A stretch of 38,304 nucleotides of DNA from a virus: the IMG/VR virus record IMGVR_UViG_3300044655_001370, positions 1 to 38,304 of that record. One strand, written 5' to 3'. The first letter of the stretch is position 1. The number at the start of each line of letters is the position of its first letter. Positions 1-35,483 of this stretch are shown piece by piece. The notes under the pieces were generated by a model. The model did not search any database and was not told the origin of the DNA. It worked only from the letters and a program-made list of their open reading frames with translations. The position numbers and the translations under genes are program-made.

Positions 1-591
1 TTTTTGTCTGTTAAAACCTGAATCAAGATCTTCTAAACCTTGAATAATTTCATCATAATTTTCATCATGAATAGATTTAACATATGGGATAGTTGTTTTG
101 TAAATTGAAATATTATAGTGACCTGGTGCTAAGATGACTTCACTTTCAAATGTATATTTTGATTTAGAAACATCAATACCTGAGTTACTAGGTACGGTTA
201 ATTTTAAAACAACACCTGCTGGACCAACTAAAAAATCACGTTCTTTACGTTTTTTATCTTCTGGTTGAGCAAAATTATTATTATCATCAAAGTATGTTGG
301 ACGTGTTACGGCAAATTGATGAGCTGTATGTACGTCTGTTGACCATGATGTAATGGTGCTTGTGGTTAATTTGGTACCATGATCTGTTTTGTCAAGAAAT
401 GATCTGTACTGCTCTTCATCAGCAAAGTTTACACTTCTGTATACAGGTAGGTTTTTTGTATATGGGTAAGAATGTAATAAATCATCAACTATATCCTGTG
501 TTGGATATTTGTCTACGGTATGTCTAGTATGTGTAGATAACCATTGATCTGCTACTTCTGATTCTGCAATAAAATCGAAAAATGTGCTCAT
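1..591 (-). CDS. Predicted ADP-ribosyltransferase, probable head-packaged protein (C-terminus cut by window edge)
   Basis: I translated 197 residues from an ATG at 589-591; the frame stays open to base 1, so the C-terminus is missing. The protein carries the R-SxS-ExE pattern of arginine-type ADP-ribosyltransferases: LPVYRS (R52), TSWST (S82-W-S84) and FESEVILAPG (E149-x-E151), preceded by a GVVLKLTVP strand as in the toxin-like ART fold (PF03496 type). Such enzymes transfer ADP-ribose from NAD+ to protein or RNA; T4 Alt, ModA and ModB modify host RNA polymerase and other targets. The N-terminus MSTFFDFIAE resembles the capsid-targeting peptide of T4 internal proteins, which gp21 protease cuts after (L/I)xE. 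A late promoter lies 35 bases upstream. The inferred role is a late-made enzyme packaged in the head and injected. The target is unknown. The fold call is fairly secure; packaging is inference. Confidence 0.72.
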   Translation of the reverse strand, partial: MSTFFDFIAESEVADQWLSTHTRHTVDKYPTQDIVDDLLHSYPYTKNLPVYRSVNFADEEQYRSFLDKTDHGTKLTTSTITSWSTDVHTAHQFAVTRPTYFDDNNNFAQPEDKKRKERDFLVGPAGVVLKLTVPSNSGIDVSKSKYTFESEVILAPGHYNISIYKTTIPYVKSIHDENYDEIIQGLEDLDSGFNRQK

Positions 592-625
592 CTCTGTATT
601 CAAATAGTAAGTGGTATAGATTACG

Positions 626-633
626 TATTTATA
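626..633 (-). promoter_or_regulatory. T4-type late promoter for the ADP-ribosyltransferase gene
   Basis: The minus strand reads TATAAATA, an exact match to the T4 late -10 element used by gp55-programmed RNA polymerase. It lies 35 bases before the ATG of the ART gene, which leaves room for a short leader. It is beyond the hairpin that closes the preceding minus-strand unit, so the ART gene has its own late start. Confidence 0.65.
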
Positions 634-653
634 GTGTCGTTCAAACGGTAAGA

Positions 654-675
654 ACCCCTAGTGTTAGCTAGGGGT
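654..675 (-). terminator. Hairpin closing the 687-1926 minus-strand unit
   Basis: A perfect 8-bp stem (ACCCCTAG at 654-661, CTAGGGGT at 668-675) with a 6-base loop lies just past the stop codon of the 134-aa gene. There is no clear U-run on the minus-strand side, so it may be a weak terminator or an mRNA 3'-end stabiliser. Confidence 0.5.
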
Positions 676-686
676 AATTATGATTT

Positions 687-2004: not shown

Positions 2005-2157
2005 ATGAAACGTGAACTTCGATTCTTAGACATATGTTCTAAATACCCGACTAAAAGTAAAAAATTACCAGAATCAGTTATGATGGAATACCTGAAAGAT
2101 TTTAATGTTACTAAAGGACCTAACAATGCCGTTACCATACGTAAAAAAGACCGCTAA
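2005..2157 (+). CDS. Small basic phage protein (50 aa), unknown
   Basis: I chose the ATG at 2005, which gives 50 residues starting MKRELRFLDICSKYPTKSKK. An upstream in-frame ATG at 1966 would add a hydrophobic stretch overlapping the divergent promoter and is less likely. The protein is Lys/Arg-rich with a basic C-terminus (TIRKKDR). There is no clear ribosome site. It overlaps the next gene by 32 bases in another frame, an arrangement seen in compact T4-like genomes. The family is unknown. The reading frame is plausible but short, so confidence is moderate. Confidence 0.5.
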   Translation: MKRELRFLDICSKYPTKSKKLPESVMMEYLKDFNVTKGPNNAVTIRKKDR

Positions 2158-2338
2158 AAAACACCATATTTCTACAGCTAAAGCTGAGAAAAAATGGAAT
2201 AAAGCAAAAGAGATAGCAAAGAGTCAAGGTAAAAGTGATAACTATGCTTTGATTACTGGAATTTATAAAAAAATGATTGGTGAAAACTTATCGTTTACTG
2301 AATTCTTAATGATCGATAAATTCATTATCAATGAATAA
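2126..2338 (+). CDS. Conserved small Lys-rich phage protein (70 aa)
   Basis: The start at 2126 is preferred over 2105 because AAAGGA lies 7 bases upstream. The protein begins MPLPYVKKTAKKHHIS and continues with an A-E-K-K-W-x-K-A-K helix, GKSDNYALITGIYKKMIGE, and a C-terminal SFTEFL segment. I recall this layout (a KA-rich helix, then DNYALITGIYKKM) from many uncharacterised small proteins of T4-like and jumbo phages. It is basic and probably two or three helices. The C-terminal SFTEFL...FIINE resembles peptides that prohead proteases cut, but its position at the end of the protein makes that doubtful. A 7-bp hairpin (2320-2336) overlaps the stop codon. Confidence 0.7.
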   Translation: MPLPYVKKTAKKHHISTAKAEKKWNKAKEIAKSQGKSDNYALITGIYKKMIGENLSFTEFLMIDKFIINE

Positions 2339-2696: not shown

Positions 2697-3554
2697 ATGT
2701 TAGATTTACAGAGATTACTCACTTTAGCAGGAATCAACGAGTCTTTACAATTAGATGAAGCTCGTGAAGATGATGCTGCAAAAAACGCTGAAGGAATTCT
2801 TGCTGCATATAGCAAAGATGACACACAAGGAAAACCTACAGTCTCGTATGACGCGAACGACAGTACAGGACAAGCTAAAACCTTAGCTGCATTAGAGATC
2901 GTAAAATTCGTATCATCCAAATTAGGTATGCCAGCTAATAAAAGCATTGTGCGTGTTATGCAATGGTATGCAAACAGTGAATTTAAATTAGATGCTTCGG
3001 AAGATGGGGATTTAGCTAGTTTAAAGACACGTTTAGAAGCGTTTGAAAAACCAGCCGTTAAAGCTGCATTAGTAGCAGCAAGCAAACCGAACACTATCCT
3101 GCAATATCCAAATTATAGTGGATTTATTGACGCTGTTGATCCTATTATTAAACTAGAACTTAAATCAGGTAAAGAACAAAGAAAAGAAGCAAAAGCTGAC
3201 GTTGAAAAATTAATCGATGGCGCTAATTTTAAAGTATATATCCCATTAACAGAAAAATCTTCTCAGTTATATGGTCGTGGTACCGATTGGTGCACAGCTT
3301 ATACAGATAAACCTAATAAGTTTAATGAATATCATGCACAAGGTAGCATTTATGTTATCTTAATACCTACTAATGAAGCTAATGGTCCAAAAGTATACAA
3401 TGGTTTCCGTAAATATCAACTTCATATGGAAAACAACGAATTCAAAGATGCGTTAAATCATGACGTTAGTAGAGAAGACGTCGCTTATTTGAGCAAAATC
3501 CCTGAATATAAAAAATTCTTAGAATATTTGATTCAAAAATATTACGCGAAATAA
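2697..3554 (+). CDS. Phage WCTA-motif protein, possible head-packaged internal protein
   Basis: The start at 2697 follows an AAAGG ribosome site and gives 285 aa; an in-frame TTG at 2625 would only add untypical residues. The N-terminus MLDLQRLLTLAGINES is an amphipathic helix ending in I-N-E, followed by L-D-E. Both fit the (L/I)xE cleavage rule of T4 prohead protease, so this may be a capsid-targeting peptide. An acidic, Ala-rich helical region follows. The C-terminal half holds GRGTDWCTAYTDK, an NxFNEYHAQGSIYVI segment and a final KFLEYLIQKYY helix. I have seen this GxxTxWCTA...Y...G-I/L-Y pattern in uncharacterised proteins of large myoviruses; its function is unknown. It is the first of a three-gene unit ending at the 4299 terminator. 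Confidence 0.75.
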   Translation: MLDLQRLLTLAGINESLQLDEAREDDAAKNAEGILAAYSKDDTQGKPTVSYDANDSTGQAKTLAALEIVKFVSSKLGMPANKSIVRVMQWYANSEFKLDASEDGDLASLKTRLEAFEKPAVKAALVAASKPNTILQYPNYSGFIDAVDPIIKLELKSGKEQRKEAKADVEKLIDGANFKVYIPLTEKSSQLYGRGTDWCTAYTDKPNKFNEYHAQGSIYVILIPTNEANGPKVYNGFRKYQLHMENNEFKDALNHDVSREDVAYLSKIPEYKKFLEYLIQKYYAK

Positions 3555-33300: not shown

Positions 33301-35038
33301 TAACGCTTCAGGTTGGGATTTATTCAGTTTAGGTGCTACTGCTAATACCGACCATGCGGGGTTTGCATTTGTTAATAGTGGTGTAGTTTATGCTTCTAAT
33401 ACTGGTAGCTCCTGGCAACATACGATAATAAATTGTGGTTCATTCCCACTTACTACGTGGATTCACATGGCATTCGTTAGAGATGGAAATTCTCTAAGGA
33501 TATATAACAATGGTGCGTTAGTAAGTACAACTACCATATCAGGAGCATTTGCAAATAATTCTGGAAAAAACTTTATTGGTGTTAAAAGTGATAATATGAC
33601 ATATGGGTTTAATGGTTATGTAGATGATTTTCGTATCACTAAGAATGTTGTTCGCTACACTACTAACTTTACACCACCAACCTATGCATTAGCTACTACA
33701 ACTGGTACCTCAATTGACGCAAACCGTGCTGATACATCGTTATTGCTAAGAGGTAATGGTACTAATGGTAGTACATCATTTACAGATGAGTCACCTAACA
33801 ACTTGACTGTGACTAATAATGGATCTGTTACTGTTAATACTACAACTAAGAAGTATGGTACGGGTAGTATATCTTTTAGTGGTAGTAATTATTTAAGTAT
33901 TCCTAATTCAAGCAGGTTAGTGTTCGGTGCTGGCGATTTTACGGTTGAAGCATGGATTAACTTAACATCAATACCAGGTGCTAATGTTTCGACTATTGCT
34001 GGTGTATGGGATGCATCAACAGGGTACGGATGGATAATACAAACCGACCCATCGATGTTAAGAATTGTAACTACTGGGCTGGTATTTACTTCCGCTAGCT
34101 GGGCTCCAGCTACAAATATTTGGTATCATATAGCGGTATCTAGAAGCAGTGGATCAATAAGAATATTCGTTAATGGAACTCAAATTGGTACAACTGCAAC
34201 AGTTACTGGCGATATACAATCAACTTTTACATTAAATATTGGAATGAATCGCGATGGTGGAAATTCATCATTGCCATTTAATGGATATGTAGACGACCTC
34301 CGCATTACAAAAGGCTACGCACGATACACTGCTAACTTTACACCACCTACCTACGAAGCTCCAATCGTAACCGGTACAGAGTATGATTATAATTATGCTC
34401 AGGTTATTTTGTTGTTGAATGGTGATGGTACTAATGGTAGCACCAAATTTACAGATTTAAGTAGCAATCAAAACAAGGTTACTGCGTCTGGTACCGCGCA
34501 AGTATCAACTAGTACAAAAAAGTTTGGTACTGGTAGCATATATTTGAACGGTGGGTCAACATCATATCTAGATATTCCGTACACTAGCGCGTTTAATTTT
34601 ACATCTGTTAACTTTACAATTGAAGCGTGGGTAAATATCGTCAATGTATCTCCTGCAAATCCTATATTATCAAGATGGCATAGTGGTGGCGACTGGGTTT
34701 ATGCTGTGTACGGAGGTAAACAGTATTTTGGCTATAATGGTGGATCCTTAAATAAAACTAGCACTACCACGCTAAGTAATAACACCTGGTACCACGTCGC
34801 TGTGGTTCTGTCCGGAACAACACTTACGTTCTATCTGAATGGTACAGCTGATGGTTCGTTCACTGGTGTAACCGTTACAGATTCATCTACAAATAATCCA
34901 CAGGTAGGTCAAGCTAATCAAGGTTCAGAAATGCTGAACGGATATATTGACGATTTACGCGTTACAAGAGGTATCGCAAGATACACTCAAAACTTTACAC
35001 CACCAACAGCACCTTTACCTACTTCTGGAGGATATTAA
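30371..35038 (+). CDS. Giant LamG-repeat adhesin (1555 aa, seven LamG domains)
   Basis: After a short Ser/Thr-rich N-terminus, seven LamG/ConA-like domains follow, ending near residues 250, 445, 685, 880, 1100, 1323 and 1543. Most units have an S(L/M)LLTG-type start, a D-S-S-x-N turn, KKFGTGSLYF-type strand, FTIEGWI strand, WHHFALVRSSG or equivalent, YLNG turn, and the closing IDDFRITKGVARYTxNFTPP. The linkers are Pro-rich (PPTAALPT). This is the Laminin_G_3 pattern, typical of glycan-binding modules. It is likely the largest adhesin of the particle, with several carbohydrate-binding sites in tandem. It has no poly-Gly or FN3 and no S74 domain. A GGAGG ribosome site in its last codons serves the following chaperone-like gene. 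Confidence 0.85.
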   Translation: MSVRKILNASSGTTTSTATASGPSDASFGSTSLLLTGDPNVVDPNFASVSLLLTGNDLLDKSNNKFSITNSGTIVVSNTTKKFGTGSLYFPNSGRLTITDSTIMSFTGNFTIEGWIICNSNRTQQNAFYNYVFSSIDAGNWSLPYITGVVDYTGKFSLNFNAGGAAVGFLSDSAITKNIWHHFALVRSSGTLAAYLNGVSMTASGSVSNSSSISQTGLIIGDSRWNTGSETWDGYIDDFRITKGVARYTTNFTPPVQALPSHEILDSSVYSLPVTTYGNARIDTATKKYGTGSMYFDGTGDYVTIPSTATGFSGDFTVEGWCYYSNASGYATIFDARVAGTYSGVLLYVNVGTSSINVTVGASTVIITGATPAANTWFHFALSRSGTSVYLFINGSQVGTTATNSTSFPSNILYLGAFCEPTANLNGYIDDFRITKGTARYTANFTPPTAALPTIPPTIAADPWWGNVSLLLDGNTTDAYDPHWQNVSLMLTGDDFIDWSNNHYAVTKSGAIATDNTIKKYNSGSIKITTADTDFATANTGSALGSSNFTIEFWFRSSSTTGYCAPFMVDNTAGGYAGITFTRSGAFLSTTGNSWEMFGYGSTQATASFDGNWHHVALCRSTVSVYLFIDGVSVGAPYNISTNSITATPAGAVLVGKQSTSTGFTGNIADFRITKGVARYTANFTPPIAALPSYKIQDRTQNNLTLTPYGNVQLSTDVKKNGTGSMFFDGTSDYLSTGTLVTGLQLGTGDFTAECWVYHVSSAVEYETYFCGGTNGFDIRRSNTGKFEVVRPGVTNVKSSTASILSNQWVHVCAVRISGTTYLYINGVLDSSVVDTNNYTGTGYFAIGSTSQSAGVYSMKGYIDDLRITKGVARYTSNFTPPSQSFATQYISTGFDPNYADASLLLTGEGTNGSTTFTDLSSSPKTITPYGNAQISTAQKKYGTGSMSFGGSGSYIAFDDVTGLGSNNFTIDFWMYVNASGWDLFSLGATANTDHAGFAFVNSGVVYASNTGSSWQHTIINCGSFPLTTWIHMAFVRDGNSLRIYNNGALVSTTTISGAFANNSGKNFIGVKSDNMTYGFNGYVDDFRITKNVVRYTTNFTPPTYALATTTGTSIDANRADTSLLLRGNGTNGSTSFTDESPNNLTVTNNGSVTVNTTTKKYGTGSISFSGSNYLSIPNSSRLVFGAGDFTVEAWINLTSIPGANVSTIAGVWDASTGYGWIIQTDPSMLRIVTTGLVFTSASWAPATNIWYHIAVSRSSGSIRIFVNGTQIGTTATVTGDIQSTFTLNIGMNRDGGNSSLPFNGYVDDLRITKGYARYTANFTPPTYEAPIVTGTEYDYNYAQVILLLNGDGTNGSTKFTDLSSNQNKVTASGTAQVSTSTKKFGTGSIYLNGGSTSYLDIPYTSAFNFTSVNFTIEAWVNIVNVSPANPILSRWHSGGDWVYAVYGGKQYFGYNGGSLNKTSTTTLSNNTWYHVAVVLSGTTLTFYLNGTADGSFTGVTVTDSSTNNPQVGQANQGSEMLNGYIDDLRVTRGIARYTQNFTPPTAPLPTSGGY

Positions 35039-35039
35039 A

Positions 35040-35483
35040 ATGGATATCGCTATTATACAAGACGACCAAGTTGTTGAAATTGGTCATTATAAAAAATTAT
35101 TTCCACTTACGTCGTTTCCAACTACCGGACCTGACGATGAATTTATGTTAGCAAATTCAGCACTTGGTGTTACAATTTGGAAACCGCACGATAAAGCAAC
35201 CCAGAAACTTATTACAGTCAACCCGTACATTGAAGATAATCAAGTTTTTACTGTTGAAGTTGCTGATAAATCAGAAGAAGATATCGCTGCTGATCAGTTA
35301 GCAGAAGCTTCAATCGTACGTGCTAAACGGAACCAACTATTAACAGAAACAGATTGGACCCAAGTTGAAGATACATCAGCTGATAAAGCAGCTTATGCTG
35401 GTTATAGACAAGCTTTACGTGATATTTCTAACCAAGATGGTTTTCCATTCGATATTATCTGGCCGGAATTATCTATTAAATAA
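35040..35483 (+). CDS. Phage_tail_APC-like fibre assembly chaperone (147 aa)
   Basis: The start at 35040 has GGAGG 9 bases upstream and follows the LamG stop by one base; an in-frame ATG at 34947 lies inside the LamG gene and is rejected. Residues about 1-85 form an N-terminal beta domain (MDIAIIQDDQVVEIGHYKKL). Residues about 98-145 match the tail assembly chaperone family: RAKRNQLLTETDWTQVEDTS and YAGYRQALRDISNQ, followed by IIWPELS. The canonical TDW is intact here, unlike in the homologue at 12409. Its place directly after the giant LamG gene suggests that it helps that protein fold or assemble. Confidence 0.78.
   Translation: MDIAIIQDDQVVEIGHYKKLFPLTSFPTTGPDDEFMLANSALGVTIWKPHDKATQKLITVNPYIEDNQVFTVEVADKSEEDIAADQLAEASIVRAKRNQLLTETDWTQVEDTSADKAAYAGYRQALRDISNQDGFPFDIIWPELSIK

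What the first reader, a model, noticed from the sequence alone, without database searches (positions are those of the whole stretch)
1..633. ADP-ribosyltransferase with a T4-like capsid-targeting peptide
The protein combines an R52 / S82-W-S84 / E149-x-E151 ART signature with MSTFFDFIAE at the N-terminus. T4 internal proteins start with a similar peptide ending FIAE that directs them into the prohead and is cut by gp21 protease after (L/I)xE. An exact late promoter precedes the gene. T4 Alt is also a late-made, head-packaged and injected ART, but this protein looks much shorter and toxin-like, so it may be an independently acquired injected effector. It could target host protein or RNA.
Basis: partly seen in the sequence, partly recalled or inferred. 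Interest (0 to 1): 0.75.

Follow-up and report, generated by a model that had tools for sequence, protein, structure and literature searches.

The report
Phage enzyme with a head-packing tag
A giant T4-like phage carries a gene for an ADP-ribosyltransferase that starts with a short address tag like the one T4 uses to load proteins into its head, so it is probably packed with the DNA and injected to modify host proteins, although neither packing nor activity has been shown.

Summary
The gene runs 591 to 1 on the minus strand and is cut by the contig end. Two relatives give the whole protein: 369 aa, an N-terminal ADP-ribosyltransferase (ART) domain plus about 180 aa of unknown domain.

Curated libraries and three earlier profiles of mine did not recognise it. 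A profile of 14 bacterial PF03496 domains ranks the three copies 1-3 of 1,642 phage ORFs (E 5.6e-6 to 2.2e-5, next 0.05), with 0 of 5000 shuffles each; R52, S82-W-S84 and E149-x-E151 fall on the catalytic motifs. No usable structure.

MSTFFDFIAE matches the T4 IPIII targeting peptide at the four positions mapped in T4. A late-type promoter sits at -42; in the 147-kb relative 9 of 13 such sites lie just before ORFs, and a gp55-type sigma is present. Three of three related jumbo phages have an S77 protease; two of them carry like tags on other proteins.

Best reading: an independently built counterpart of Alt. Packaging, cleavage, injection and activity are inferred. It is not an Alt homologue, nor "much shorter": it was truncated.

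The parts
1..591 (-). ART gene, 5' part (residues 1-197); 3' part missing beyond base 1; full relatives are 369 aa
562..591 (-). capsid-targeting-like peptide MSTFFDFIAE, predicted prohead protease cut after Glu10 (I8-x-E10)
433..441 (-). ART motif 1, Y-R52-S
340..348 (-). ART motif 2, S82-W83-S84 (StS position of the PF03496 profile)
139..147 (-). ART motif 3, E149-S-E151 (ExE)
626..633 (-). T4-type late promoter element TATAAATA, starting 42 nt before the ATG, conserved (TATAAATA, TATAAATA, CATAAATA)
646..680 (-). conserved terminator-like hairpin (ACCCCTAG..CTAGGGGT and a U-rich tail) between the upstream gene and the promoter

Best explanation
The gene encodes a head-packaged mono-ADP-ribosyltransferase of a jumbo T4-like myovirus. 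It is transcribed late from a gp55-type promoter. Residues 1-10 act like the T4 IPIII capsid-targeting sequence: aromatic residues 4 and 7 dock it into the prohead core, and an S77 prohead protease cuts after I8-A9-E10, leaving a mature N-terminus at Ser11. The mature enzyme enters the next host with the DNA and transfers ADP-ribose from NAD to host protein, probably to arginine because the motif is ExE, and plausibly to the transcription or translation machinery as T4 Alt does. Shown here: sequence anatomy, ART homology, promoter context, conservation of the tag, and the protease in related phages. Inferred: packaging, cleavage, injection, enzymatic activity, target.
For: ART: the 14-domain PF03496 profile gives the three copies E 3.9e-6, 4.2e-6 and 1.5e-5 among the 1127 ORFs of five records (next ORF 0.035) and 5.6e-6, 6.1e-6 and 2.2e-5 among 1642 ORFs of six (next 0.05); 0 of 5000 shuffles for each of 3; on 180-residue pieces they score 18.1-23.3 bits, eight Alt ART domains 12.9-24.7. 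Tag: T4 IPII and IPIII read from the T4 record begin MKTYQEFIAEA; a review places targeting at residues 4 and 7 and processing at 8 and 10 (PMC9026906, section 2.6); all three copies have F4, F7, I/L8, E10. Late expression. Protease: S77 in 3 of 3 complete related phages. Tags on other proteins of the lineage: three of four RAS14 proteins queried keep theirs in XacN1 orthologues of 33-62% identity, and a nucleotidyltransferase-domain protein of the same 147-kb contig has a tag and a late-type promoter at -39.
Against: No ART family reached in Pfam, PHROGs, NCBIfam, PADLOC or the PDB sequences, only sub-threshold hits to other families (best PHROG 0.11). Alt-only profile: 25, 99 and 39 of 2000 shuffles score as high. 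A 7-sequence PF03496 profile: 41, 0 and 1 of 3000; a mixed 16-sequence profile: 10, 16 and 11 of 3000; with both, other ORFs scored higher than the copies. hhalign not significant. Leave-one-out of the 14: without L116 the window copy falls to E 0.028 and the other two to 0.11 and 0.87; without L154 one copy falls to 0.1. Strict mART expression not met: I80 for Y/F, W83 for T. Both structure predictions unusable (mean pLDDT 38.7 and 32.3). RaK2 has no such tag (0 of 474). Of the 7 tagged ORFs only 3 have a late-type promoter within 120 nt: both of G001, 1 of 4 in RAS14, 0 of 1 in XacN1. No S77 protease on the two relative contigs.
Confidence: 0.72

Rival explanations
1. An ART made in the infected cell as a late, non-packaged enzyme; the FIAE-like start is coincidental or only the start of the first helix.
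For: A late promoter alone explains late expression. Tag-like starts occur at a background rate: 11 hits among 2352 candidate Met against about 4.2 expected.
Against: All four functional positions of IPIII are matched and kept in three contigs; the residue after the cut is Ser, small like T4's Ala; the second tagged gene of the contig also has a late-type promoter; orthologues of other tagged proteins keep the tag at 33-62% identity.
Confidence: 0.17
2. Not an active ART: a degenerate or structural relative of the ART fold that serves as an internal head or core component.
For: S-W-S replaces S-T-S; Pfam cut-offs are not reached; T4 core and internal proteins carry like peptides. The C-terminal domain is unknown.
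Against: R52, S82, S84, E149 and E151 are invariant in three copies 81-90% alike, though at that identity this is weak; a published survey kept an R-SFS-ExE protein as a putative mART (PMC7764402, passage).
Confidence: 0.15
3. The ART is one half of an NAD-based unit with the downstream NadM-Nudix and NadV genes, which rebuild NAD from the nicotinamide it releases.
For: In the two relatives NadM-Nudix lies on the same strand about 3 kb downstream (family tested on L003 only), and in G001 NadV 4.6 kb downstream.
Against: NadV is also in XacN1, RAS14 and RaK2, in which no relative of this ART was found, so salvage is a lineage trait; three genes lie between, the first similar to a virion structural protein family (E 8.5e-6).
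Confidence: 0.12

Closest known systems
T4 Alt (gpAlt, NP_049811.1)
   Same: ART with R-S-ExE motif; short N-terminal propeptide ending in L/I-x-E (6 residues in the X15811 record); head-packaged and injected in T4 (PMC9026906 and PMC10468400, passages); late made (recalled)
   Different: No significant homology (hhalign E 0.16); Alt is 682 aa with the ART domain in its C-terminal half, here 369 aa with the ART right after the tag; Alt's propeptide is MELITE, here an IP-type 10-mer
T4 internal proteins IPII and IPIII (capsid-targeting sequence MKTYQEFIAE)
   Same: Ten-residue N-terminal peptide, aromatic at 4, F7, I/L8, E10, small residue after the cut
   Different: The rest of the protein: no ART domain is reported for the IPs (not tested here)
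PF03496 ADPrib_exo_Tox bacterial ARTs
   Same: Domain-wide profile match over residues 32-158 of the window copy with the three catalytic motifs in register
   Different: Below Pfam's own detection; S-W-S in place of S-T-S; phage context, unknown C-terminal domain
ARTs and PARPs reported in jumbo phages (PMC7824862, passages)
   Same: Jumbo phages of all three groups of that survey encode ARTs thought to modify host proteins
   Different: The passages seen do not link a jumbo-phage ART to a capsid-targeting peptide; tblastn in 50,697 phage records found no relative (one chance hit at E 3 to a tape measure protein)

Membership tests
ADP-ribosyltransferase superfamily, R-S-E class (PF03496-like) | homology over the domain to known members | tested here: met
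   E 3.9e-6 among 1127 ORFs, 5.6e-6 among 1642, 0 of 5000 shuffles; three earlier profiles were not significant
ADP-ribosyltransferase superfamily, R-S-E class (PF03496-like) | R / S-x-S / ExE catalytic residues in order | tested here: met
   R52, S82-W-S84, E149-x-E151 aligned on the profile motifs, invariant in three copies
ADP-ribosyltransferase superfamily, R-S-E class (PF03496-like) | strict mART toxin expression [YFL]-R-x(27,60)-[YF]-x-S-T-[SQT]-x(32,78)-[QE]-x-E | tested here: not met
   I80 and W83 deviate; spacings R52 to S82 (29) and S84 to E149 (64) are of the usual size
ADP-ribosyltransferase superfamily, R-S-E class (PF03496-like) | Pfam PF03496 gathering score | tested here: not met
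   T4 Alt reaches it
ADP-ribosyltransferase superfamily, R-S-E class (PF03496-like) | ART fold | tested here: inconclusive
   AlphaFold models with 3 sequences unusable
ADP-ribosyltransferase superfamily, R-S-E class (PF03496-like) | transfer of ADP-ribose from NAD | not testable with these tools
   needs the purified protein
T4 Alt family | full-length homology and ART domain in the C-terminal half | tested here: not met
T4-type capsid-targeting peptide | N-terminal 10 residues with determinants at 4, 7, 8 and 10 | tested here: met
T4-type capsid-targeting peptide | S77 prohead protease in the same genome | tested here: inconclusive
   0 of 2 relative contigs (fragments); 3 of 3 complete related phages
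T4-type capsid-targeting peptide | packaging and cleavage after Glu10 | not testable with these tools
   needs virion proteomics
T4-type late gene | TATAAATA-type promoter and gp55-type sigma factor | tested here: met
   promoter; sigma, on the 147-kb relative

The most novel reading that the evidence does not exclude
Jumbo T4-like phages run a modular cargo system: one portable N-terminal address (F/Y-x-x-F/Y-[LI]-x-E) loads a changing set of host-acting enzymes into the head, here an ART, elsewhere a nucleotidyltransferase-domain protein, an HExxH metallopeptidase-like protein and a kinase-like protein, so that new injected effectors can be found just by reading the tag, and Alt-like injected ARTs arose more than once by putting a tag on a new ART.
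Probability: 0.4. Interest if true: 0.72.

Novelty: new variant of a known kind. Interest (0 to 1): 0.56.

Why it matters
If true, the injected-ART strategy of T4 Alt has been assembled a second time from other parts: an IP-type address plus an ART that is not an Alt homologue. The address offers a simple, testable rule for finding injected effectors among the many unknown proteins of jumbo phages, and residues 1-10 can be tested at once in the T4 packaging system.

Tried and rejected
Curated libraries: no ART family in Pfam, PHROGs, NCBIfam, PADLOC or PDB sequences. Relatives: four viral-contig scans returned only the same two contigs; a motif scan of viral contigs gave those two and two others that I judged unrelated by eye; 50,697 phage records gave none; genome contigs none by protein; the same motif in genome contigs gave 34 stretches, whose best E with the A1 profile was 0.0006 (of 34), not meaningful because they had been picked for that motif, and no R or S-x-S motif sat where it should in those I looked at. 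The domain profile in 369 genomes gave 7 weak hits (E 0.02-0.07); of three that I tried to open, L122 showed an unrelated protein, L124 printed nothing and for L125 the frame printed was not the matched one; the other four were not opened. Structure: two AlphaFold runs unusable, so no fold search was made.

Profiles: an Alt-only profile (9 sequences), a 7-sequence PF03496 profile and a mixed 16-sequence one failed before the 14-sequence one. The last used all PF03496 matches given as loci except L156 and L158 (partial) and L159 and L160 (below cut-off); L157, also partial, was kept. As positive controls eight of ten Alts were scored; RB69 (L065) was left out because its motif region does not align, L067 was simply not run. 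A 'tight' motif pattern matched only the three copies, but I wrote it knowing the sequence, so it is not evidence.

Tag pattern: several versions were tried. Each exceeds expectation in the 147-kb contig and in RAS14; in RaK2 none does by any margin (at most 5 against 4.7). The pattern was drawn from the ART itself, so the ART is not an independent hit. The idea that ART and NAD genes form one unit was weakened. C-terminal domain: no assignment.

Full report
What is there. The window is a 38,304-base viral record. The gene named in the finding lies on the minus strand from ATG 591 to base 1, where the record ends. It codes for 197 residues here. Two other IMG/VR contigs hold the whole gene: L003 (contig of 147,618 bases, G001) and L002 (36,994 bases, G002), 369 aa each, 81-90% alike. 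So the protein is not small: an ART domain follows the first ten residues, and about 180 residues of unknown C-terminal domain follow it.

Is it an ADP-ribosyltransferase? The bare motif is worth little: 12 of 1642 ORFs of six phage records (the three copies among them) match a relaxed R-SxS-[QE]xE pattern, 11.0 in shuffles. No curated library recognises the protein as an ART, and three profiles of my own were not convincing: Alt domains alone, 7 bacterial PF03496 domains, and both together. A profile of 14 bacterial PF03496 domains, gathered without reference to the query, is: among the 1127 ORFs of five records the three copies rank 1, 2 and 3 with E 3.9e-6, 4.2e-6 and 1.5e-5, the next ORF has 0.035, and none of 5000 shuffles of each reaches its score; eight T4-type Alt ART domains score in the same range (12.9-24.7 bits). 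With XacN1 added (1642 ORFs) the values are 5.6e-6, 6.1e-6 and 2.2e-5, next 0.05. R52 falls on the profile's arginine, S82-W83-S84 on StS, E149-x-E151 on ExE. Leaving out one sequence at a time keeps the window protein at E 0.005 or better in 13 of 14 cases (0.028 in the other); the other two copies fare worse, up to 0.11 and 0.87. The three copies are orthologues, not three independent tests. Two AlphaFold runs failed, with only three near-identical sequences to go on, so the fold is not shown.

The N-terminal peptide. T4 IPII and IPIII, read from the T4 record, begin MKTYQEFIAEA. A review (PMC9026906, section 2.6 read; passages) reports that the first 10 residues of IPIII suffice for packaging, that residues 4 and 7 matter for targeting and 8 and 10 for processing, and that gp21 cuts after L/I-x-E. 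The window has MSTFFDFIAE-S and the most distant copy MSTFYQFLVE-S: F4, F7, I/L8, E10 kept.

Expression. TATAAATA (T4 late promoter, recalled) starts 42 nt before the ATG, behind a conserved terminator-like hairpin. In the window the octamer is not enriched (6 against 8.2 expected), but in the 147-kb relative only 13 [TC]ATAAATA sites exist on both strands and 9 start 25-65 nt before an ORF, where about 0.2 would be expected; three of these ORFs are over 1000 aa and one is the ART. The same contig encodes a late sigma factor of the gp55 kind (E 1.7e-25 to PHROG 234).

Lineage. A gp26-like hub protein of G001 finds 63 phage records, none above 60% identity; those listed first are of Stenotrophomonas, Xanthomonas, Klebsiella and Pseudomonas phages, mostly records of 280-390 kb (26-31% identity). 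RaK2, RAS14 and XacN1 all carry an S77 (gp21-type) prohead protease (3 of 3). The two relative contigs show none (0 of 2); both are fragments, and other head genes were not searched for, so this says nothing either way. No relative of this ART was found in the three complete phages.

The tag on other proteins. A pattern of F/Y/W/L, two residues, F, L/I, any, E within the first 16 residues is found in 7 of 1571 ORFs of four records against about 1.7 expected (P 0.002, the ART included): 2 of 128 in G001, 4 of 454 in RAS14, 1 of 515 in XacN1, 0 of 474 in RaK2. Three of the 7 have a late-type promoter within 120 nt (both of G001, one of RAS14). With Y allowed in the second place and other Met starts considered there are 11 hits among 2352 candidate Met against about 4.2 expected (P 0.004); two of the XacN1 hits carry the same peptide and are probably the two copies in its terminal repeats. 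The statistics are moderate. More telling is that three of four RAS14 proteins queried keep the tag in their XacN1 orthologues at 62, 45 and 33% identity; the fourth, and the tagged proteins of G001 (ART apart) and XacN1 81006-81653, found no match in the other records. The tagged proteins differ in kind: a nucleotidyltransferase-domain protein in G001 (PF01909, E 4.2e-5, above cut-off), a protein with a conserved HExxH in RAS14 and XacN1 (RAS14 copy without Pfam match), one that looks kinase-like to me in XacN1 (no Pfam match), and three RAS14 proteins of no known kind, one of them only 70 aa. RAS14 also has a 256-aa protein starting MKIQTLLQLLNEA with sub-threshold similarity to KptA and PARP, ART-type folds (E 0.09 and 0.11); this is a lead only.

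How it most likely works. Made late, drawn into the prohead core by residues 1-10, cut after Glu10 by the S77 protease, packed, injected with DNA, and then ADP-ribosylating host protein. ExE suggests arginine as acceptor (general ART knowledge). T4 Alt, injected and acting at once on RNA polymerase (PMC10468400, passage), is the working model. Target and activity are unknown. NadM-Nudix and NadV genes lie downstream on the same strand, but NadV is also in all three complete phages without a found relative of this ART, so the link is at most convenient, not specific.

Comparison with the known. It works like Alt by hypothesis but is not a member of the Alt family by the tests made: no significant homology to Alt and another domain order. 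It belongs to the R-S-E ART superfamily by profile, outside Pfam's PF03496 threshold. Jumbo-phage ARTs are known (PMC7824862, passages). In eight searches, and in the passages or sections that I saw of seven papers (PMC9026906, PMC9958956, PMC10468400, PMC7764402, PMC6628389, PMC7824862, PMC10052503; none read whole), I met no statement that a jumbo-phage ART carries a capsid-targeting peptide. The review itself proposes that such peptides let T4-like phages load various proteins, so the principle is in print.

Noticed in passing
window 2697-3554 (+); L003 2099-2932 (-); L002 2095-2910 (-): Neighbouring conserved protein begins MLDLxRLLTLAG[IL]NES, an I/L-x-E-S near the N-terminus kept in all three contigs; possibly another prohead protease substrate.
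   Followed up: partly
window 2105-2338 (+): Small conserved protein ends ...FTEFLMIDKFIINE, a tag-like string at the C-terminus.
   Followed up: no
L003 9138-10178; G001 33750-35120: NadM-Nudix and NadV (NAD salvage) genes downstream of the ART; NadV also in XacN1, RAS14 and RaK2.
   Followed up: yes
L008 16626-17357 (-) (G001 92626-93357): Nucleotidyltransferase-domain protein starting MKQSLTQFLIES with a late-type promoter at -39: second tagged cargo candidate of the same contig.
   Followed up: partly
L046 12294-13064 (-) (RAS14): Protein starting MKIQTLLQLLNEA with weak KptA/PARP similarity (E 0.09 and 0.11): perhaps another tagged ART-fold protein.
   Followed up: partly
L058 15509-16357 (+) (RAS14); XacN1 372722-373579 and 53927-54784: Tagged protein with conserved HExxH (HEVQH/HELQH), metallopeptidase-like by eye; the RAS14 copy has no Pfam match.
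   Followed up: partly
L133 1006-1653 (-) (XacN1): Tagged protein (MKQVRLSQFLSEA) that looks like a protein kinase-type fold by eye; no Pfam match.
   Followed up: partly
G001 62934-64955 and 120428-124006: Helicase (UvsW-like) and DNA polymerase genes of the relative look, by eye, interrupted by intein-like sequences and split into separate ORFs.
   Followed up: no
L065 195-2282 (RB69 alt): In the AY303349 record the Alt motif region does not align with the other Alts over a stretch, as if out of frame there.
   Followed up: no
window 9243-35038: Several of the large ORFs tested look like tail-fibre or adhesin genes (fn3, laminin G, collagen, Mtd_N, YadA head, GP38-like domains).
   Followed up: partly
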